Assembly: GCA_905250025.1 (NCBI GenBank)
Contig: CAJNOJ010000053.1
Span: forward strand, 1 to 64,000
Reading direction: 5' to 3'
Source: Adineta ricciae
Lineage: Eukaryota; Rotifera; Eurotatoria; Adinetida; Adinetidae
Length of the DNA: 64,000 nucleotides
Positions 4,001-57,300 of this stretch are shown in pieces; the first letter of the stretch is position 1; each line of letters starts with the position of its first letter. The position numbers and the translations under genes are program-made. The notes under the pieces were generated by a model. That model searched no databases and had not been told where the DNA came from. It saw only the letters and a program-made list of their open reading frames with translations.

Positions 4001-7000
4001 TGATAACTCAATCAAACCACTTTCGACCGAAAGAGTCAATCATTCATGTTTACATTTCGACTAAGGCGTATCACTCTTGTCTATCCATATTTGTTTACTG
4101 ATTTAACTCGTTGATGTCCTTTGAATAATGTACACGATCATGTCATATAATTGAGAATGAGATATCTACGTCGACGTAAATTTTGTCCCGTATGCAATTG
4201 CACCACGAATGTCTTTGGTATACTAAAATAAAATAGATAGTTTTCAGGAGAAAATGAGCAAACTATTATTAATTGTTTATTTGCTGTAATTTAGGACAAA
4301 TGACATCTTTTAATGCGCATAATATGATCCGACGTGTTATTGAACAGAGAAATAAGAAGAATGCAATGGAATACGGATGGTTAAGTAAAACAGATATGAC
4401 TATTGTGGCTGTATCAATCCTATTTGTTATTCTTCTCGCAATTATTAATTTAATTCTCTTTGCTGTTCGAAGGTAGATCGAAAAAAACCGAGGATTTCTG
4501 AGTCAAAAATCATGGATTGCTTTTTAGACATCGTCATCGAGCACACGGACAACATTTACTCAGTGCATCAATTCCGTCCTTATTAGACGATCGACGTCTC
4601 GGAGGTAATGGTCATTTACATGGACCGATATTTGGTGACTCGACCAATAGTCTGATGCCACCAGGTAATAATAATAACAATGATATTTTACCAGCTGTTG
4701 GTACGTATAGAAGTCGTTCTGAGACATGAACAGATGAATTTCATTGACTATGATTGTAGGTGAAATTGTTATATGGGACGAGAAAGATCAAGGTGGGTAC
4801 ATGATCGATAATAATGGCGCATGGGCAAAAATTGAAGGACGTCAATGGTTCGGTAGTAATCTATTTAAAAGTTGTACAAAGACTTCACTTTCGAAAAGGT
4901 AGTTTTGATTAATAAGACGAGTAGTGTGACGAATAATTTCTAATTTAATTTCTATGCTCATAGTTTCCGTTCCCGTTTTCGATTGATTCGCCATTGGGAT
5001 AAAAAGAATCCTCAAAATCCACATCAACCACCGATGACGCCGAAAACTCATCCAACACCGCAACAAGCATTCAAGTTCCCATTGCTTATGGACAGTAAGC
5101 ATCTCAATGAACAAACTATGAAAAACAAATTTCCCCGTCAATCATTTTAGCTGCCACTCTCTCACCAGTCCCTGAAGCCGACGATTACGATTCCTCAGAT
5201 TTGAGTTTATCCGACGTAGTTATTCGAAGTTCAGCTACCACGTTGAATAATTCCAATAAATGCCATCAAAAGCAACCGTTGATGAAATCTGAACGAAAAT
5301 ATGATCTATCACCACAAAATCAACAACAAGTAGTCCACGTGATCCTTTGTTGAAAATTTATTTTCTATTACTTTGAATTTTTAGACAACAAAAACTATTC
5401 AAGCTTTAATTCATTCAGATCAACAACTAAGCGATGACTACTATAAACGAATTGCTACGAGTGTAGAAGATTCAAATTATACAGCAATGTCCGACAATAT
5501 GCCGCGAGAACCGTCGATCATTGATCAAGAAACAGATCGAAGTTTGGGAAATAGAATTACTGCAGGAGAGCATATGATTGTCAGCGTACCAACTATGTTA
5601 CGACCAGATGATGATGCTGGCACGAATACTGATGGTGGAGATTCTATTTATAATCCACATTATTCAGTTCAATCGATTGTCGAAGTAAACCTCATCACAC
5701 ACCGCGTTTCTTCGTTTAGCTCTATTATTACTTTGTTTCTAGTATCCCTATCCAAATTATCTTCAACCAAGTAATCGCACAGGACCATTCCTTACTCAAC
5801 CATCAATTAGTACGTTCAAACCAACTACGAATAATCCTGTTATCATCGGTATATGTCAAACAGAATTTCAAGCTCTTGATCCCGCTCTCCTGTTTAAAAC
5901 AACAACTGATCATCAACAGTTCTATCGTAGTTCCCAATCTGTACCAATTTCAACGTATGACTCAGGTTTTGTTGATGAACAAACTGTTGGAAGTTTTTCT
6001 ATCGCACATGGTCATGATCGATCGCGAAATGATCTACCAAACGAACAAAAAGATCGACATATAAGTATGGATGATATCCTATTGACTAAAAGTGAACAGG
6101 ATGATGACGATGATAACTTACCTATAAATCATTCTGCACCAATTGAACTCAACAAATCAAACAAACAAAAATGGAGACAAGCGTCAAAACGCGTTTCATT
6201 TCAAGGTAAATATATTTTGATTAAGACATTAGCTTAAACTGCCATTACTACTATTGAATTTTATAGAAGAACACGTTACTCAACGTTTTTCACCTCCATT
6301 ACCATCATCATCATTCGACACCGCAACCAATCCTGAAACATCATCAGATCCTTTCGACACATATGATGTTTCCACAAATGCACCTCAGCCAATACCTCCC
6401 GCTCCCCCACTACTGAAAACGTTCGTCGCTCCGTCCACAGCAACTAGTTTCACTGATAATTCTCCCACAACAAGTAGCATATTTACTACACAAAAACAAA
6501 CGACATCGATTGATAATGAAGATACTGCACAAAATGTGATTATGAATCATTTACATTCTGTTAAATCATTAAAAAAATTCTTTGAAACCAAAATGGTCGG
6601 ACAACACGCAGCTTCAGCTGCTCAGCTAATATCAATAACTACGAATGATAATCAGAGAACCGATCGAATACCAACGATGACTAAAGAACAAAAACCAGTT
6701 GATGAATTAGAGCAACGACAAGAAATGATGAATAAAGTATTGGAAAGCTTGAAAAAGAAGAAAGTTTACACAAGAGGACTGAATGGTAATCGAAACATTC
6801 ACAACTATATATCGAAGACTACTCTTATCTGTCGTTTAGATACTCCGGAATCCACGAGTCGCTATGCGGCATTGACAACTTCCTCTTACGATTCGAATCT
6901 CGCTCAAAATCTACCTGTACAACGTCATTATTCTCGTCGTTTTCGTTCATCTTCTACAAGTAACAATTCTCTTCATCCTGGTGGTAACATTATAACTCAC

Positions 7001-7318
7001 ATTCAATCCGGCAATTCTCATTATAACAAACGTGCTTACTCTCAAGACCGTCAACAATATCAGACAGCCGATCATCTGAACAATGTCGACAAATGGAAAC
7101 AAGAGCATCAACGACAAGTTGAATCTGACGATGACGATAATATGTCGGAGAATTCGATGTTATGGCAAGCACGTACGAAACTCAATGAATTCGTTACACG
7201 GACACGAAGAAATCAACAACAATCACCCTATTACACAACATGTACAAATGGCGGTACGCCGACGGAAGATTTATATACATATGATGATGAAAGTGTTACA
7301 GCAGAAACACGTTTTTAG
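1019..7318 (+). CDS. SUEL lectin-CUB-mucin stalk single-pass receptor-like protein
   Basis: Many exons. Exon 1 (1019-1087) encodes a signal peptide starting MRRISLFLLVLF. A 56-bp intron joins it in phase to 1144-1489, a Cys-rich SUEL/galactose-binding-lectin-type domain (YCHNSNGPG, ACSGRENCTV, FFECIS). Exons from 1826 to about 2230 encode a CUB domain (TPNFPNPY, DDCWCKL, then GGFWIIYEG). About 2850-3965 is a Thr-rich, mucin-like stalk. The exon at about 4295-4473 holds one transmembrane helix (IVAVSILFVILLAIINLI). The rest to the stop, about half the protein, is a Ser/Gln-rich cytoplasmic tail with no domain I know; an internal WDEKDQGGYM stretch may be a short fold. Known families: SUEL domains occur in EVA-1 and latrophilins and bind sugars. 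Inference: a surface adhesion or guidance receptor. Splice phases agree at the junctions checked; exact boundaries in the tail are less certain. Confidence 0.8.
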
Positions 7319-7765
7319 CCGAGAAAGAGAGAGACTTGAGCATGTATTTTTTATGCGCCTTTGTTTTTGTTCTTCTTTTCTGCTGTATTTCAATCCGACG
7401 ACAAGAAGTTTTATCAACGATTTTCAAATTGTATGTTTTATCTGTTTGATTTCCGATTATGACTTGCTTTGTTTTTCTTTTGTCGATCTACAATACAATC
7501 TTATAAAATAATATTTACTGACATAAACGTGTATTGTCTTTTGCCTCTAATTTATCCGATGACGTCTTTTAATAGACAATGATGCAAGCAAAGCAAGAGG
7601 AAAGCCACCAGCTGTCCCACCCACCCACCCATCGATTACTCGCAATTTGAAACGATCAAATCATCGTATGAAGTATCACTTGAGAATAGGCAAATATACT
7701 ACGAATTTTATTTTTACTTCAAAGCACACAGACGCTCGAATATATTATAAAAAATCGCCTCACAA

Positions 7766-8387
7766 TCAAGCACACGACCAAGCGTACCGTTTTGACGAGT
7801 CTCTAGTACTTTGTAGAATACTATTGAATTCGTTGTCGATTGTTGATTGTTTTAAACCAGCTTTGAGAGGATGTTCGCAGAGATAGAGGCGAGTGTTCGC
7901 TGGTCCCCATACTGGCTGTCCAATTTGAAAATCATGCATTTTGAGTATGGCTAATAAGGAGAGAAGTGTTTGATCATCGAATAGATTTGATTCATCCGAT
8001 TGAACATGAACTTGACAAAGAGATACGAACGTTTCTTCATCGTTGTCAATTGTTGACCAGGTAGTATCTAAAATATTTCTATTGAATAAATATCCTTTGA
8101 GAGAATATACACAAGTATAAAAGCTTGCAATCGAGTGTGCAAACGACTCGAGGTAAATTGTTATTTTTCTTTTTTGTCCAATGTTATTGCATACTTCTAG
8201 TTGAATTACTGTTCGTCAAAAATGAAATCAACGAATGTACAAGAAGATTAAAACTCGAAGGTTAAGACAGTGAGAGTTTAAATGAAATGTTCAATTTGGA
8301 GGGTAACTTACAAGTCTTCATTGAAAACAATAGAAGGAGTAGAATAGATAAGATAATGCCGAGAAAAACAATCGTCGGACGATCCAT
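7766..8387 (-). CDS. Small membrane-anchored or secreted protein, unknown function
   Basis: Two exons, 8312-8387 and 7766-8067, joined over a 244-bp intron in matching phase, give 125 residues. The first 22 residues (MDRPTIVFLGII followed by a Leu/Ile-rich run) are a signal peptide or signal anchor. The mature part contains SLCQVHVQ, a hydrophobic LLSLLAILKMH segment, QPVWGPANTRLYLCEHP and a C-terminal Cys (YAWSCA). Three Cys could allow one disulfide. I do not recognise the family. The gene lies downstream of the ATF4-like gene on the same strand, with about 290 bp between them. The in-phase splice, the hydrophobic start and the clean stop favour a real gene. Confidence 0.6.
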
Positions 8388-8681
8388 GTTGGACTGTTAA
8401 CGTTTTGAGATGAAATGTTGCTATTGTTCGACAAGATTGATGTTTTACTTTGTACTCTTTCTGAAGAATGTCGTGTCTCATACTCAAACAATGTTCTCTC
8501 GATTGTTTTTTTCTCTTTCCTTCTTTCAAATTTCGATATCAGCCTTTACGTACACACGTTACCATATTTATTGAGTAAATAGATGAACAGTACAGACAAC
8601 AAAGAAGAGAAAATGAAGGTTAGGCGATATAAAGAACGATATTAATGATAATAGTGAACATCCGAAGTACAGCGAACAGAT

Positions 8682-48390: not shown

Positions 48391-51300
48391 ATGCCGATGA
48401 AACGGGGCCATGTTTCGGCTCCTCAAAATACATTTATTGATACAATTATACGTAAATTTGACTCACAAAGTACGAGCATTTTCCTCATTAGTAGCGCATA
48501 AACATACTTTTGTGTTAATTAGATCGCCGGTTTCTTATATCCAATGCTCAATTGGCTAATAAACCGATAATCTACTGTAATGATGCTTTTTGCGAACTAA
48601 CTGGTTACTCACGTTCAGATATTATTCAAAAGCCTTGTACATGTGAGTTCTTGTATGGCAATGAAACAAATGACAAATCGATTAAACAAATTCGTCATGC
48701 TCTACAAGGAAGTGATGAGAAAGAAGTAGAAATTGTTTTATATCGAAATACTGGTAAAAGATTTTCAAAATGAGAGAAAAGATCGTTTTAGAAATCGTTT
48801 TTTCCAGGTACTAAGTTTCGATGCTCGGTTTTGATCGCACCGGTGAAAAATGAATCCTGCGATATCATTCTATTTATCTTGGAGTTTACTGAAAGTACCG
48901 ATCGGAGTCGTCCTCGACGAATGCGTATGTATCGTTTCAACTCATTTTCTCTCTTTCTGGAAAGGTCAATATATTCCATATGATCTAACCTTCTAGCTAA
49001 GATTCGTGAATACTCGATTAGTCCGACAAGTACGTACGGAGTCCGATTCAAGTTCGTTAATTCTCAAAAACGATTCATTCTAGGTGGAATTCGCAAACGT
49101 TCGTGGTTAGATATGATAAATCCTCTGTCAAGAAATCGGCCAGTACAGAAGAGCAATCTCTCAGCTGATGATGCAAATGAATGTGACACTCCGACTGTCT
49201 CCATTGAAACGCCAGGATACACAGGTAACGAATGAATTCATTCCTCAGTTTGAGGAACTCTAGCGAAGTACAAAGAAGTGTAGACATATAATTGATTAGG
49301 TTTATGTCTAATTGTTGAAATGTCACCGATAATCGAATCACCATGTTATGTTGTACATAAAATTTATATGTTTTTTTGTTGCTTTCTGAATAGCTTTGAA
49401 TCATAAAATGACAACAGCGATTCATTTGGATGAAGTACATCCTCCATCAAGCAAACCTTTTCCACTTGATTATAAAATCAGTCAACAGTCATCGATCAGT
49501 GCGAATAATTTACTCAAACCTGATAGTAATCCATGGAATACCAATAGTAACGATGTGGATTTGATGAGAAACAAGTCTCAAAGTATTAGTAACATCGCTG
49601 GTAAATTCCGAAAGAAAATCAATAACATTCTCGTATAGCATCAATTTAAATTTATTTAGAAACTGTTATTAAGAAAGAAACCAAAGAATCAAACAAAACA
49701 AAGCGTTCATTTTTGCCGAATATTCCACATCATATCGCCCAGATTCTATCGTTAGGTGAAGATATTGTACCTGACTTTCGTCTGCCTGATAGTCGTCGTA
49801 TTCCACGCACAATTATTCTTCACTATTCTCCATTTAAAGCAACTTGGGACTGGTTTATTTTATTGCTTGTTATCTATACAGCTATTGTTACTCCTTACAT
49901 TGCGGCATTTCTAATGCACGAAGATGGACCCAATCGACAACGCTCACGACCATCACGTGCTCTGAATGTTATTGAGCTTATTGTTGACGTTATGTTTATT
50001 ATTGATCTGTTAGTAAATCTGCGTACGACGTATGTCAAACGTAATGAAGAACTAGTCACACGTGCGAGTAAAATAGCGAAACATTATCTCAAAGGATGGT
50101 TTCTTATCGATGTCACTGCGGCTATACCTTTCGATATTCTATTTTCATTAATTCAAACGAAAGGCGGTGGCGAATCGACAGTATTAATGGGTTTATTGAA
50201 AACGGCACGTTTATTGCGATTAGTGCGTATTGCTAGAAAACTCGATCGCTATTCGGAGTATGGTATTGGAGTCCTAATTCTATTAACGGCAACATTTGCA
50301 CTCATCGCACACTGGCTTGCTTGCATTTGGTACGCTATTGGACGTCTCGAACGAAATAATCATGGTAAATATTGATCGGCAAAGGTTTTCTTCTGGAAAT
50401 GCATTGATATTAAGAAAGAACTGTCGATGTCGAGTATTGAGTGATTCCGATTTTATTTACTATAGGCACTGAAAGAATGATTGGATGGTTAGCCGAATTA
50501 GCTAATCATACCCATCAGTATTATAACGATTCAGATGCAACATCTGGTCCAACGAAAACGTCCAAATATATCACTGCTCTTTATTTCACTTTTTCTTCTC
50601 TAACATCAGTCGGTTTTGGTAATGTGAGGTTAGCATCCACATATCTCGAACGTAATTGTTTGTTTCTCAGCAATCTCTTCTCTCTAGTCCAAACACCAAT
50701 AGTGAAAAGGGTTTTTCAATTATAATCATGCTCGTAGGCTGTGAGTTCCTCTTTTGTCTTGTGTCTGTCTGTCTGTCTGTCTGTCCTCTAACTAGTGCTA
50801 TTGTCGTCATTGTTGTCGCGTCATACTGTGTTTGTTTCGCTTGATATTTTTAGGACTACGTATTACTTGGCTTGATGAATTAGCCCGTACATCAGGCCAA
50901 TCATATAATTGTTCGGTAGTACATTCACCAAACGACACCATCTCACTACGAACTGATCCAAACTTATGTTTTGGCGGACCTAATCTTCGTTCAAGATATA
51001 TCACAGCCCTGTATTTTACATTTTCGTCATTAACATCAGTTGGCTTTGGGAATGTAAGATATGCTAATGAATGAGAAGACAACAACGAAATTCGATTCGA
51101 TTTTGTCTATTTTTTAGGTTAGTCCGAATACAAACATGGAAAAAGTCTTTTCCATATTTGTTATGTTAATCGGATGTGAGAAGCACAGAGTGTATACGAT
51201 TGCTTTGAAAGAAAAACCCGACTGCATGTGATTGATGTTGCTTTCATGTCCATATCATATATCTTACAAAATAATGCCTCATTAATCGTCATGTAATTTC

Positions 51301-54300
51301 TATTTATCATGTCTTTTAGCTTTGATGTATGCCAGTATTTTCGGTAATGTCAGTGCTATTATTCAAAGATTATATTCGGGTACTGCACGTTACCAAATTC
51401 AAATGTTACGGTATGAAGAAATCAGTGAGCTGTCTGTGTAAATAAGCATCCATGTTGATTTAGAGTGAAAGAGTTTATTCGTTTTCATCAAATACCAAAT
51501 CCATTGCGGCAACGTCTCGAAGATTATTTCAATCATGCCTGGAATTACACGAAGTAAGCATTTGATTCTCGTCTGACTCGTTCTCATTTGACTATTCTAG
51601 TGGTATCGATATGAATATGGTTCTAAAGGGCTTTCCGGAATGTTTGCAAGCTGATATATGTTTACACTTAAACAGTCAATTGTTAAAGAATTGCGCGGCA
51701 TTTAAAGGTTTCCTGGAGATATGCGCCGTTCGGCTTTCTATGTTCAGACTTCTTTTTTTTAAGATGCGAGTGAAGGTTGTTTACGAACGTTTTCGATGAA
51801 ACTTAAAACAACACACGCACCCCCCGGTGATATCATAACACATCGTGGAGATATTTTAACATCGATCTATTTTATTTCCCGTGGATCGATTGAAATCCTG
51901 AAAGATGATAACGTCGTTGCTATTCTTAGTATGTACCCTGATGATGTTTTCCTCAACATTTGTGTACTTGATGTTTAGGTAAAGATGATATTCTTGGTGA
52001 AAACCCGTTGTTATATAGTGAACCGGGAAAATCAGCGTATAATGTTCGAGCGTTGACTTATTGTGATTTACATAAGATCCTACGAGAAGATTTACTTGAA
52101 GTCATTGATATGTATCCAGAATTTGCACAAAGTTTCTGTCAAAATCTGAAAATTACACTGACTCTACGTGATGTAATGCCTTCCCTCGTCTTCACAATCA
52201 TCGTTTTGAATTTTACAGGAAGAGCTGGTGACAAAATCGAATGAATGTCGATCGAAATATTTTCCCAGTGCACAACAATTTCGCGGAAGTAAAGATTCTT
52301 GATTCTCGTCCTATGCACGATCATTTCTCTTACAGGTACATCGTGTAATCGAACCGAAGATGACAACATATCCATTATGGCACCACACCAATCCTACTTC
52401 GACGAATATCCGAGCGGAACAGGTAATTTATCTTTCATCTTTTCCTCTGAATCATCAAGCTTATATTCGGAATTTCAATCGCATTTATTTCGTAAATTGT
52501 ACGCGCTAGTGTTTCATTAGTAGTTAAAAGCAACACTATAGGTTAAATAAATAAATGCCCACACGTGCACAGCAAGAAAGGATAGTGTATACACAACAAT
52601 ATGAAACGAAAGAAAGGATGTGTTTTGGCTTGTTTATTTCGTTTCGGCTATGTTAGCAGGTGCAGCTTGATCGTTTGATGGTGTTGCAGTTTCAACTGTG
52701 TTTGTTGACGGGACGTTCGTTGGAGGTTGTTCGGCTAAAATGAAGGAGTCATTGATAGATTAATTCTTGTTGTATAAAGTTACCTTGTTGTTCAAGATTA
52801 TTTTTCACTTCTGTATCAAAGAAATTATAATGAGAAAAGACTCTAAGTCAGTTTTCCTACCTTCGCCCGCTTGCTTAGCATCAGCTGCAACTTCGGCAAC
52901 TTTATCTTTTGCATCATCGACTTTCTCAGACACTTTGTCTCTTACTTCATCAGCTACAAATGATAAAATAGAGTCAAAAATAATTTCAATACAGAAGAAC
53001 GCAAACCTTTTTGTTGGGCTTCCTGTTTGACTTCTGCAAACAAAATCAAAAATAATTACTGATACTTTTTATCATGAGTCAAATCTGATATTACCTTGCC
53101 CCACTGCTTTGGCGTCTGCAGCGAGTTCACCAGCTTTGTCTTTCGCTTCGTCAACTGAAATGCTCAATTTAGTTTAAGAGCTAACCTTACGTGAAAGTTT
53201 GAACACACCTTTCTGTTCAGCAACTTGTTTGACTTCTAAAGACACAGACGCAATCACTTGGAAAATATTAAAATTCTACTCACCTTCGCCTTTCGCTTGA
53301 GCATCAGCAGTCAATTCAGCAGCTTTATCTTTTGCTTCGTCGACTTTGTTGGAAGCGTTATCTTTCAGTTCGTCAGCTAAGAATAAACAACTTAAATGGG
53401 AACGAATTACAATAAACAAAAGCAAACCTTTTTGTTCAGCTTCTTGTTTCACTTCTAAGCAGTGAATTTCAAAGGGTGATTGCTTTCTTTGACTTTAGAA
53501 ATAACCCTACCTTGTCCTGCTGCTTTGACATCAGCAGCAAGTTCGCCTGCTTTTTCTTTCGCTTCATCAACTTTTTCCACCGCTGCGTCTTTCAACTCAC
53601 CAGCTAAAGGACAACACAGGATTTGAATTCAGAGTGTAATTGAAATACTAAGTCAAACCTTTTTGTTCGACTTCCTGTTTTACTTCTAAAAATATAAATT
53701 ATAAATATAGACGACTGATCTTCTCATTTTCCAGGTCATTATTACCTTGACCTGCAGCTTTGACTTCTTCCACTTTCTCTGCTACTGCGTCTTTCACTTC
53801 ACTCGCTAAATATTGTCAATGTACTTTCACCACACTTGAAAAAATAATCGTACCTTTTTGCTCAGCACCCTGTTTCACTTCTATATGCACCAACATTGTG
53901 AGTTATAAACTATGTTCGAAAGTATAAGGATGTCACTTACCTTCTACTTTTGCTGAAGCATTTTCTACTAATTCACTAGCTTTTTCTTTCGCTTCTTCAA
54001 CTTTCCCCGAAACAGCGTCTTTCACCTCTCCAGCTAATTGTTCAACATCATTGTATAGTTGAAAAACAAAATCAATTTCGTGTTTACCTTTTTCTTGGGT
54101 ATCTTGTTTGACTTCTAATTATGGAAATTTAGGATTAGACTCAACTCGTATTGTCCATATACATTACCTTCTACTTTATCTGCAGCAGCAGTTGCTACTT
54201 CACTAACTTTTTCTTTCGCTTCATCAGTTTTTTCCGAAGCTGCATCTTTGACTTCAGCAGCTAAGCACACGACGAGATAAAATACTTAACAAAGAAGTTC

Positions 54301-57300
54301 AGTATCTACCTTTCTCTTGAACATCTTGTTTTACTTCTGCTCATAGAAAATCAACATTAACTTTAATATCCATAATTCAATTTATTTACCTTCGGCTTTG
54401 CCTGAAGCAGCAGCGGCTAATTCACCAGCCTTATCTTTTGCTTCATCCACTTTTTCGGCTGCTTTCTCTTGCAATTCACCGGCTAAATATAGACTATATT
54501 TACCACTCCACTTTGAAATTCATTGCGTACCCTTTTCTTGAACATCTTGCTTCACTTCTGTACATGGAAAACTTAGAGTGTGATCTTCTTTTCCGTGTGA
54601 CGAAATTTACCTTCTCCTTTCGCTTTTGCTTCATCGATCTTTTCTTCAGCTTTGTCCTTCGCTTCTTCGACATTTCCTGTCACTTGTTTCTCCAATTCAG
54701 CGCCTGTAGAATAAGAAGCAAAGTTTGACTTTTTTGTTATTTAGAGAACGACGTTCGTTGTTACCTCTATCTATGGCTTGACTAACTACTTCAGTCACTG
54801 CAGATCAAATAAAAGCAAAATATTTTTTATTGATGACATACGGAACTCTACCTTTATCTTTGGCAACAGTAGCTAATCCGGCCAGACTAAATAAACAGAA
54901 GCATTTGAGAAGAAATAATTTTTTGTAGGATAAATCACCTTTGCAAAGCTTCTTCTGCCGAATGAACAACGGCTGAACCGACTTCAGTTACCTTTTCCGA
55001 AGCCTACGAAAAAACAATTCGCGAAAATTGAAGAATAATACCTCTTCATCTAAAAGCTATACCCATTGCCCAGCAGCTACCAGTTGTTCACCTACTAAAT
55101 TAGCAGCACCAGCTACAGCTGTCGGAACAGCTTGTACTGACTCAGCAACCTAAGAAAGAATCGTAGAAATTCAACGAGCAATTGAGTCCAATACTAACAA
55201 CATGTCCCAGGTCTTGGGCTTTTTCCACTGCTGCATCTTTAGCGTGAACAGCCGTTTCAACGATCGTGGTTTTTACTTCATCTGCCTTCTGTGCGGCGTC
55301 ATCGGCCGCTTGTGCGCCAGCTTCCTTAACTTGTTCGGCCTTTTCTTGTACAGCATCTTTTACTTCACCAGCTTTCTGTGCCGTATCGTTCGCTGCCTGT
55401 GCGCCAGCTTCTTTAGCTTCACTAACAACTTGAGCACCTGAAGAGAAACACTCACAAGCTCATATGTTATAGTAATTTTTCGTCTTATTCATAAGCAACT
55501 AAAACACACATCCCTCTTCATAGATGTTTTTAATGAAAAACCAACCATCCCTTGAGCTAGTAACAAATAAGTCTTTTTCTGTCCTATAGAGTATACGTCT
55601 CAGAACGATTAGCTAGATGATGAATTGAATAGTACAGATAATAACAGGCATACCAGTTTCTTTAACATCATCAGCTGCCTTTTCTGCTGCATCTTTCACT
55701 TCGGCAGCTTTATCTTTAGCTGCATCGACGACTTCATTTGCTGCAGCTTGAACTTCAGCACCTATTCGATATAAATACACAGAAATGATGTCAATATCAA
55801 TGATAAATACCTTTTTGTTCCACGTCGTTCTTGACTTCTGCTACTTTTTGCTCTACTGAAAATAATTACGATGATTATTTGTAAATCTGTCCAATGTAAT
55901 AGAACAGAACAAATGCATTACCTTGTACATTAGTCTCTTTCGCTTCAACTTGAACATCGGAAACGGCTGCAGGTTGTTGTTGAATGTCTGACATCGTATC
56001 TGTCTGTGAATTGTTTGCGAATAGAATACGTTGAAATGAGAAAATCTGGAAAATATTAGGAAGGATAGAAACACTATGCTCTTTCTTCTCCTCGGCCATG
56101 TATCCAAAAATATCTTTTCATGAACATTGTCTAGTAGGCACGGATGCTGTTATCTCGTCTCAGAGATGAAGAAGAGACGAACAAACATGCATACACACCC
56201 ATGCACTGCTCCTTATATAGAGAGATATTTTTGCACATCGAATAGGAAAAAAAAGATCGACATTCATAGCTTTAGTCAGCCGATATCGAGCGTATGACGT
56301 GAATGACCTGAGTAATAGGCGTAAAAGAAAAGGCAAAAAACAAGAACTTGTTTACTGATTCTCCTTTCTTAGACGGTACGATTGCATATCTTATTTGCAC
56401 AACAGAATCTTGTCCTTTTCTCTAGTTTGCTAACACAACGATTCATCGTCAGACTTGTCTTTCAAGAAAAGAAAATAAACAAGTTCTTATCATAGTGTTA
56501 TTCTTAAAAGTCATCTCATGTTGAAAAACTCAAACAACGCCAAGCACGTCGTTTGTTTGTTCTTAAATAGATCTCGTGATTACACAAGATATGTACTTCA
56601 GTGAGAAAACAACAAGTCATAATCACATTTTTATCAAGCAATTATAGTAAATGCTATTAGATTGTTGAATGTTTCTCCGTATCTATTTCGATAGCTAATT
56701 GATCATTAATTTAATTGTATGTTTGACTTGCGAGTAATTATTTATTTATGAGACGAAATTCGATCAACAAGATAAAATTTCATTTGAGCATCTGAGACCA
56801 ACATTGATGTCGTTTGAAATGCGAATCGACCCTGCTTAACAGCTGGTCTGGCAAATACGAGAAAACACTTTTATTTGTGATAAACACAGCGAGTTTATTT
56901 TTCCCTCTCTTTATTCAAGGTATACTCGAGTTTAATCCCCAATTAGCCGGACAGGATATAACTCCTGCTAATTTGGAATTCGGCACTATTGTGACACGAC
57001 GTCGTGATCGCCGAGAGAAGTCCTTCAGTGGTGCGTCAATGTTTCATGGTTGGTTGTCATGTGCTAGGAACATTTGTTGTTTTTGATAGGAAATTTAGTT
57101 TCAGGTAATCAATCATCATCAAATGCCTTTCATCGATCGTCATTTACAGCCGTAAATGATGAATTAATTCCATTGGTTAGTCGAACAAAAACTAGCACGC
57201 GAGTGTTTTTGTTTTTGAAGAAAGATTTCTTTCCTTTTAGACAAATCAATCATCAACACTTGATCCCTATCAGTCAAGTATCGAATATCGACTACAAGAA

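What the first reader, a model, noticed from the sequence alone, without database searches (positions are those of the whole stretch)
50466..51175. Two alternative pore cassettes in an ERG potassium channel
Two adjacent exon pairs each encode the S5-P turret, pore helix, SVGFGN filter and start of S6. Each pair enters and leaves in phase 1 (216 and 258 nt), so either can fit between S5 and S6 but using both would give two pore loops. The filter core is identical in protein yet differs at synonymous sites, so both are old and under selection. The turrets differ in length, Cys and glycosylation motifs. In hERG the turret and filter region set C-type inactivation, so splicing could switch channel inactivation or block. 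I know of no described mutually exclusive pore exon in ERG channels.
Basis: partly seen in the sequence, partly recalled or inferred. Interest (0 to 1): 0.85.

Follow-up and report, generated by a model that had tools for sequence, protein, structure and literature searches.

The report
Swappable pore exons in ERG channel
A potassium-channel gene of the ERG (heart-rhythm channel) type carries two ready-made versions of its pore entrance side by side, laid out so that using both would break the protein, which would let one gene make two channels with different outer mouths.

Summary
An ERG (Kv11/KCNH) channel gene encodes its S5-P turret, pore helix, filter and start of S6 twice, as two adjacent exon pairs: A (50466-50628 + 50688-50740, 216 nt) and B (50854-51053 + 51118-51175, 258 nt), each phase 1 in and out. 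The only other ERG gene found in this genome (contig C44, far diverged at synonymous sites) has both cassettes with the same phases and splice positions. Both are under purifying selection (dN/dS 0.04 for A, 0.17 for B). Twelve amino-acid positions split A from B and none splits the two genes, so the cassettes are older than the gene pair. One correction: using both does not give two pore loops; in both genes the A|B junction makes a TGA stop. Best explanation: mutually exclusive two-exon cassettes giving two ERG isoforms with one filter but different turrets; B has a longer turret with two cysteines. RBFOX control of B is only a lead. There is no transcript evidence, and no other species could be tested. 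Mutually exclusive pore exons are known in other channels; my searches found none described for ERG/KCNH. New variant of a known kind.

The parts
48391..49600 (+). ERG N-terminal exons e1-e6 (e1 48391-48469, e2 48523-48753, e3 48808-48924, e4 48997-49029, e5 49084-49224, e6 49394-49600): eag/PAS domain and linker; start codon chosen by likeness to hERG
   Evidence: spliced model; PAS_9 E 3.9e-19; best PDB matches are hERG PAS entries, E about 6e-48
49660..50364 (+). exon e7: S1-S5, ends in phase 1 (CAT G|gtaaat)
   Evidence: Ion_trans E 2.7e-36 for the spliced core with cassette A; 91% identical to the C44 gene
50466..50628 (+). cassette A exon 1 (A1): turret, pore helix, filter; donor GAG|gttagc, phase 2
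50624..50629 (+). alternative donor inside A1 (AAT|gtgagg, phase 0), present in both genes; would allow an in-frame A1-B2 chimera
50688..50740 (+). cassette A exon 2 (A2): start of S6, ends GGC T (phase 1)
   Evidence: its 17 complete residues are identical between the two genes while 5 of 16 same-residue codons (Met left out) differ
50854..51053 (+). cassette B exon 1 (B1): long two-cysteine turret, pore helix, filter; donor AAT|gtaaga, phase 0; begins GA, so A2|B1 makes TGA
51118..51175 (+). cassette B exon 2 (B2): start of S6, ends GGA T (phase 1)
51176..51319 (+). intron downstream of cassette B; the only one of 17 introns with P under 0.05 for likeness between the two genes by the stricter test
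   Evidence: 1000 dinucleotide shuffles: P 0.009 global, 0.004 local, before correction for 17 introns
51223..51228 (+). TGCATG (RBFOX-type motif) in the intron downstream of B; the C44 gene also has one TGCATG in this intron, at another position
51320..51410 (+). exon e12: rest of S6, shared by both isoforms (LMYASIFGN...)
51464..52422 (+). exons e13-e18: C-linker, CNBHD and tail (e13 51464-51553, e14 51601-51707, e15 51764-51928, e16 51979-52172, e17 52219-52288, e18 52336-52422); the end of the gene is not settled
   Evidence: cNMP_binding E 2.1e-13

Best explanation
The gene is an ERG (Kv11/KCNH) voltage-gated K+ channel with a tandem duplication of a two-exon unit that encodes the S5-P turret, pore helix, selectivity filter and start of S6. 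The cassettes are used mutually exclusively. Within each cassette the short intron (59-69 nt) is removed, then the S5 exon joins either A1 or B1 and the S6 exon is joined from A2 or B2. Errors are not translated into a double-pore channel: A+B inclusion makes a TGA at the junction, and A1 joined to B2 at the default sites shifts the frame, so such transcripts would be expected to be removed by NMD. The products are two ERG subunits with identical filters: A, with a turret close to hERG length and a derived S6 start ([10 protein letters not shown]); and B, with a hERG-like S6 start and a turret that aligns to hERG with an insert of 17 (window) or 14 (C44) residues and has a cysteine near each end of it, plausibly a disulfide-closed loop. 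The functional difference most likely lies in the outer vestibule: sensitivity to external ions, pH or blockers, and a moderate shift of inactivation or gating. Choice of B may be promoted by an RBFOX-type factor through UGCAUG in the intron downstream of B. Shown: gene structure, conservation in both genes, selection, frame consequences. Inferred: actual exclusive use, NMD, disulfide, physiology, RBFOX.
For: Both cassettes fit in frame. The same architecture, phases and junction stop occur in 2 of 2 ERG genes found. dN/dS 0.040 (bootstrap 0.012-0.090, 300 of 300 replicates usable) for A and 0.168 (0.072-0.316, 299 of 300) for B. 12 aa and 46 nt positions split A from B, against 0 and 1 that split the two genes and 0 and 2 the third way. 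The 5-nt displacement of the inner intron (A phase 2, B phase 0) is kept in both genes. Two turret cysteines are kept in both B and absent from both A; sequons NHT and NDS are kept in both A. Of 17 introns only the one after B keeps likeness by the stricter test; GCATG occurs in it in both genes and in none of the other 32 introns; an RBFOX-like RRM is encoded in the genome. The other four KCNH-like loci each give one pore match in each cassette search.
Against: No RNA data. No species outside this genome could be tested. The stop at the A|B junction needs only that a Gly codon be GGA, so its presence in two genes is weak evidence of selection for it. An alternative donor in A1 (AAT|gtgagg) and, by reading, an alternative acceptor in B2 (GTTAG|T, GTCAG|T) would allow an in-frame A1-B2 chimera, so exclusivity need not be strict. 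No conserved intron-intron pairing: 1 of 20 tests below P 0.05, not repeated in the other gene. No significant excess of synonymous constraint in the cassettes: 51 of 127 same-residue codons changed against 288 of 614 elsewhere, P 0.17. The RBFOX motif was picked after the fact, its exact form sits at different places in the two genes, and the intron likeness does not survive strict correction for 17 introns. Two cassettes with the same filter may differ little in function.
Confidence: 0.86

Rival explanations
1. Only the turret-pore exons A1 and B1 are alternative, and B2 is a shared exon: A1 uses its inner donor (AAT|gtgagg) to join B2, while A2 is a vestige.
For: The A1-inner-donor to B2 product is in frame; the inner donor looks closer to the recalled consensus than the outer ones (GTTAGC, GTGCGC) and is present in both genes.
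Against: A2 is intact in both genes, its 17 complete residues are identical while 5 of 16 same-residue codons differ. A phase-0 join to A2 runs into stops (B1-A2 test), so A2 fits the outer, phase-2 donor of A1. A vestige would not be kept so. The chimera can still exist as a minor third isoform, so this overlaps with the best explanation.
Confidence: 0.08
2. One cassette is the working pore and the other is a dead or dying exon duplicate.
For: B evolves faster than A (dN 0.179 against 0.034); tandem exon duplicates often decay (recalled).
Against: Both are open, spliceable and constrained in two genes that are far diverged at synonymous sites; B pore part 34 of 38 and A pore part 38 of 38 residues identical; cassette-specific residues are kept.
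Confidence: 0.04
3. The two cassettes are an assembly artefact or a very recent duplication.
For: None found.
Against: A and B differ at 27-30% of aligned residues, with a synonymous distance of 1.9 in C44 and beyond estimation in the window, and the arrangement is repeated on another contig.
Confidence: 0.01
4. Both cassettes are spliced in together by default, so the junction TGA is the regulated outcome: an unproductive transcript that turns the gene down (poison-type control), with single-cassette forms made only in chosen cells. This overlaps with the best explanation.
For: The junction stop is present in both genes. The A2-B1 intron (113 and 94 nt) is not too short to be spliced: 18 of the 24 constitutive introns of the two genes are 45-60 nt.
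Against: Needs RNA data; it does not explain two different, conserved turrets unless both single forms are also made.
Confidence: 0.1

Closest known systems
NALCN alternative exons 15a/15b and 31a/31b (PMC3557258, passages read)
   Same: tandem, mutually exclusive exons that span the P-loop of an ion channel; exon 15 also covers the start of S6, exon 31 part of the turret
   Different: four-domain cation channel, single exons, and the switch changes the filter residue (E or K); here the filter is identical and the unit is two exons of an ERG K+ channel
Invertebrate T-type (Cav3) channels with alternative S5-P extracellular loops (PMC4436565, abstract and passages)
   Same: splicing gives S5-P loops of different length with three or five cysteines
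   Different: calcium channel family; different domain organisation
[quoted passage not shown] 1997; seen only as a reference entry in PMC2727049; PMC6573723 not held)
   Same: by its title, alternative splicing of the pore region in a voltage-gated K+ channel
   Different: shaker (Kv1) family; the paper itself was not seen here
Human hERG (KCNH2)
   Same: PAS, S1-S6, CNBHD, SVGFGNVS filter, long turret; best PDB sequence match for the A pore, the B pore and the PAS part
   Different: a single pore version; the known hERG isoforms differ at the N and C termini (recalled)
U2AF1 exons Ab/3 (PMC5224494, passages)
   Same: tandem duplicated exons whose double inclusion makes stop codons and NMD
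   Different: skipping both also makes a stop there; here skipping both stays in frame but removes the pore

Membership tests
ERG (Kv11) channels | N-terminal eag/PAS domain with ERG-type cap ([19 protein letters not shown]) | tested here: met
   best matches hERG and KCNH7 PAS, E about 6e-48 and 2e-47; 'Eag-like K[+] channel' 4hp4 3e-34; KCNH1 best 2e-30. The cap motif as an ERG mark is recalled.
ERG (Kv11) channels | pore closer to hERG than to EAG, with SVGFGNVS filter and hERG S6 ([23 protein letters not shown]) | tested here: met
   hERG best E 8e-55 (B) and 1e-57 (A); KCNH5/KCNH1 best 2e-35 and 3e-38
ERG (Kv11) channels | six-helix channel domain and CNBHD | tested here: met
   Ion_trans 2.7e-36, cNMP_binding 2.1e-13 (only isoform A given)
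ERG (Kv11) channels | fast C-type inactivation with slow deactivation | not testable with these tools
   S620, N629 and S631 equivalents are present in both cassettes (alignment); no currents
Mutually exclusive exon clusters | tandem homologous exons that encode the same protein segment in compatible frames | tested here: met
Mutually exclusive exon clusters | inclusion of both is not productive | tested here: met
   TGA at A2|B1 in 2 of 2 genes, by in-silico splicing
Mutually exclusive exon clusters | exactly one included in mature transcripts | not testable with these tools
Mutually exclusive exon clusters | known enforcement (docking/selector RNA pairing, steric spacing) | tested here: inconclusive
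   no pairing with P under 0.05 in both genes among 10 intron pairs. A2-B1 spacing of 113 and 94 nt is longer than 21 of the 24 constitutive introns of the two genes, which argues against a steric block.
RBFOX-regulated exons | UGCAUG downstream of the alternative exon and an RBFOX protein in the genome | tested here: inconclusive
   TGCATG in the B2-e12 intron of both genes, at different positions; a plain GCATG at intron position 49 in both; RBFOX-like RRM on C36 (and two short matches on C4). No binding data.

The most novel reading that the evidence does not exclude
An ERG potassium channel that switches its whole outer pore module by coupled, mutually exclusive two-exon cassettes. Wrong combinations are removed by built-in stop codons and frame offsets. 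RBFOX-type control selects in excitable tissue a subunit with a disulfide-closed, lengthened turret while the selectivity filter is held constant. It was kept in duplicate through an ancient gene duplication, and subunits A and B may co-assemble into mixed tetramers with graded outer mouths.
Probability: 0.3. Interest if true: 0.75.

Novelty: new variant of a known kind. Interest (0 to 1): 0.6.

Why it matters
ERG channels set repolarisation in the human heart, and the part their long turret plays in toxin binding is described as controversial (PMC4108063, abstract and passages). A gene that has kept two natural turret-pore modules with one and the same filter, in two diverged copies, is a ready-made experiment on what the turret does. 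It would also add a K+ channel of the KCNH family to the channels known to swap pore exons, with a two-exon unit and frame-based quality control.

Tried and rejected
Double-pore protein: rejected, TGA at the junction in both genes. Artefact or recent duplication: rejected. Conserved RNA pairing between introns: not found; 10 intron pairs in each gene, 200 shuffles each, 1 of 20 below P 0.05 (B1-B2 with B2-e12 in the window, 0.035; 0.214 in C44). Likeness of the A2-B1 intron between genes looked strong against simple shuffles (z 4.3) but vanished with trimming and dinucleotide-preserving shuffles (P 0.31 global, 0.68 local), so it is dropped; only the B2-e12 intron (z 4.9) remains. Lower dS in the cassettes (0.86 and 1.06 against 1.66-1.83 in the five other segments with an estimate; the CNBHD gave none) suggested synonymous constraint, but the direct count is not significant (P 0.17) and 4-fold sites do not differ clearly (A 16 of 30 and B 15 of 34 unchanged; S1-S5 47 of 99). 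Rooting of the A/B split with hERG is weak: the protein tree puts hERG with the B pair (100% for that split, 76% for the B pair itself), but an unrooted tree cannot say which cassette is ancestral. The Ion_trans_2 search (150 of 182 candidates scored) was meant to look for other tandem pore exons; it did not list C44 or cassette B, so it is no test of how common such pairs are. L030 and L031 (C16, C12) were fetched but not read beyond the match tables; L029 (C6) was read in part.

Odds: left as first written. The confidences of the best explanation and the rivals add to more than 1 because rivals 1 and 4 overlap with it.

Literature: four searches aimed at mutually exclusive pore exons in ERG/KCNH or K+ channels. 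Searches gave no paper. One search (two of three terms) gave 67 papers; the 15 listed had no occurrence of 'mutually exclusive exon', the other 52 were not seen. One search (bdelloid, potassium channel, alternative splicing) gave one paper on other matters, seen as a listing. Only open-licence papers are held, so this is not proof of absence. Searches were for related precedents; of their hits I saw passages of PMC2727049 (one reference entry), PMC3557258, PMC4436565, PMC6992539, PMC4108063, PMC5224494 and PMC5840707, none in full.

Full report
What is there. The window holds an ERG channel gene on the plus strand, from about 48391 to at least 52422 (the 3' end is not settled). Its spliced N-terminus matches the hERG PAS domain (E about 6e-48). 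The channel core and CNBHD are recognised by Pfam (isoform A). The pore matches hERG ahead of EAG with either cassette.

Between the S5 exon (ends 50364, phase 1) and the S6 exon (starts 51320) lie two exon pairs. A is A1 50466-50628 and A2 50688-50740 (216 nt). B is B1 50854-51053 and B2 51118-51175 (258 nt). Each pair alone restores an uninterrupted S5-turret-pore-S6.

Frame consequences of the seven joins tested. A alone or B alone: in frame. A followed by B: TGA at the junction (GGC T|GA). Skipping both: in frame but without a pore. A1 to B2 at the default sites: frameshift and stops, because the inner intron lies 5 nt further downstream in A (phase 2) than in B (phase 0). A1 through its inner donor AAT|gtgagg to B2: in frame, a possible third isoform. 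B1 to A2: stops, and out of order in any case.

A second gene. Searches of the whole 130 Mb genome with each cassette and with the S1-S5 exon found one other ERG gene, on contig C44 (locus L028). It has A1 163, A2 53, B1 191 and B2 58 nt, the same phases, the same 5-nt offset and the same TGA on double inclusion. Thus 2 of 2 ERG genes found carry the arrangement. The four other KCNH-like loci (C6, C12, C16, C166) each gave a single pore match in each cassette search. The two genes are far apart: dS 1.66-1.78 in S1-S5, S6 and PAS, not estimable in the CNBHD.

Selection and age. Between the two genes A is 94% identical in protein (dN 0.034, dS 0.86, ratio 0.040, bootstrap 0.012-0.090) and B 78% (dN 0.179, dS 1.06, ratio 0.168, 0.072-0.316); the S1-S5 exon gives 0.036 (bootstrap replicates without an estimable dS were dropped: 0 of 300 for A, 1 for B, 11 for S1-S5). 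In B most of the changes sit in the turret (30 of 44 residues identical); its pore part has 34 of 38 identical, while A has 29 of 33 and 38 of 38. Twelve amino-acid and 46 nucleotide positions group A with A and B with B; 0 and 1 group by gene; 0 and 2 the third way; a nucleotide tree gives the same split with 100% bootstrap. The cassette duplication is therefore older than the gene duplication, and there is no sign that the cassettes have been homogenised. A and B share 33 of 38 residues of the pore part in the window, 21 of those 33 with different codons; in C44 35 of 38, 17 with different codons.

What differs between the products. The filter and pore helix are the same, including the residues equivalent to hERG S620, N629 and S631 (numbering from the paper passages; alignment). 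Both cassettes have Glu at the N588 equivalent; in hERG N588E is said to enhance and N588K to attenuate inactivation, so this position does not set A and B apart. A has a turret near hERG length with sequons NHT and NDS, no cysteine, and an S6 start [12 protein letters not shown], in both genes. B aligns to hERG with an insert of 17 residues in the window and 14 in C44 (16 and 13 against A), with a turret cysteine near each end of it in both genes (YNCS...LCFGG and YDCS...TCTGG), a sequon in the insert (NDT or NAT), and an S6 start like hERG. A disulfide-closed loop in B is an inference. According to PMC6992539 (passages), turret-helix changes can shift hERG inactivation, but a chimera with the EAG S5-P linker in hERG still inactivates like hERG, and S620 and S631 are central. 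According to PMC4108063 (abstract and passages), toxin BmKKx2 binds mainly the pore region with a secondary role for the turret, while earlier work with BeKm-1 gave the turret helix a larger part. I therefore expect tuning of the outer vestibule rather than inactivation switched on or off.

How exclusivity may work. A steric block is unlikely, since the A2-B1 intron (113 and 94 nt) is spliceable by size: 18 of the 24 constitutive introns of the two genes are 45-60 nt. Intron-intron pairing was tested for 10 intron pairs in both genes; 1 of 20 tests fell below P 0.05 and it was not shared. Of 17 introns compared between the genes, only the one after B2 keeps likeness against dinucleotide shuffles (P 0.009 global, 0.004 local; about 0.15 and 0.07 after correction for 17). 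That intron holds the only GCATG motifs of all 34 introns: one in the window gene, two in the C44 gene; an exact TGCATG is in each, at different positions, and a GCATG sits at intron position 49 in both. The genome encodes an RBFOX-like RRM (exon RLHVSNIPFRFRDEDLKAMF and exon GFGFVTF...VVEGRKIEV on C36). A review says that RBFOX bound downstream of an exon promotes its inclusion (PMC5840707, passages). This is a lead found after the fact, not a demonstration. Stop and frame offset would clean up mistakes; stop codons on double inclusion are described for U2AF1 (PMC5224494, passages).

Results against. There is no RNA evidence and no second species. No significant synonymous constraint was found (51 of 127 against 288 of 614 changed same-residue codons, P 0.17). 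The junction stop depends on one Gly codon choice. An A1-B2 chimera is possible.

What is known. Mutually exclusive pore exons are described for NALCN (PMC3557258), alternative turrets for T-type channels (PMC4436565), and alternative pore-region splicing for lobster shaker (title seen in a reference list). Searches for the same in ERG/KCNH found nothing in an open-licence library (in one search only 15 of 67 papers were listed). This is therefore a new variant of a known kind: mutually exclusive pore exons in a KCNH channel, as a two-exon unit.

Noticed in passing
window 52634-54740, minus strand; L028 about 6820-8390: Small exons coding for lysine/alanine/glutamate-rich repeats ([23 protein letters not shown] type) lie just downstream of the ERG gene in both genes, so the gene order is shared. 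They resemble late-embryogenesis-abundant proteins, but the best LEA_4 match among three ORFs tried (E 0.0019, 18.5 bits) is under the Pfam cut-off.
   Followed up: partly
L040 (G000:C36:504460-505141) and G000:C4:83548-84158: RBFOX-like RRM split over two exons; the C36 exons were read, the C4 matches were seen only as table rows.
   Followed up: partly
window about 50762-50785 (A2-B1 intron): A short TGTC tandem run (gtctgtctgtctgtctgtctgtc) in the intron between the cassettes in the window gene, not seen in the C44 gene; it may have inflated the simple-shuffle likeness of that intron.
   Followed up: partly
window 50613-50692 (cassette A) and 51042-51126 (cassette B): The inner intron sits 5 nt further downstream in A than in B with no change of protein: in A the bases GTGAG after AAT, where B has its donor (GTAAG), are coding, and B2 begins GTTAG or GTCAG, which itself ends in AG. 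It looks like intron sliding.
   Followed up: yes
G000:C6:243000-250500 (L029): A divergent KCNH-like channel with filter SVGFGNV and, as read, a single pore, its introns placed differently from the ERG genes.
   Followed up: partly
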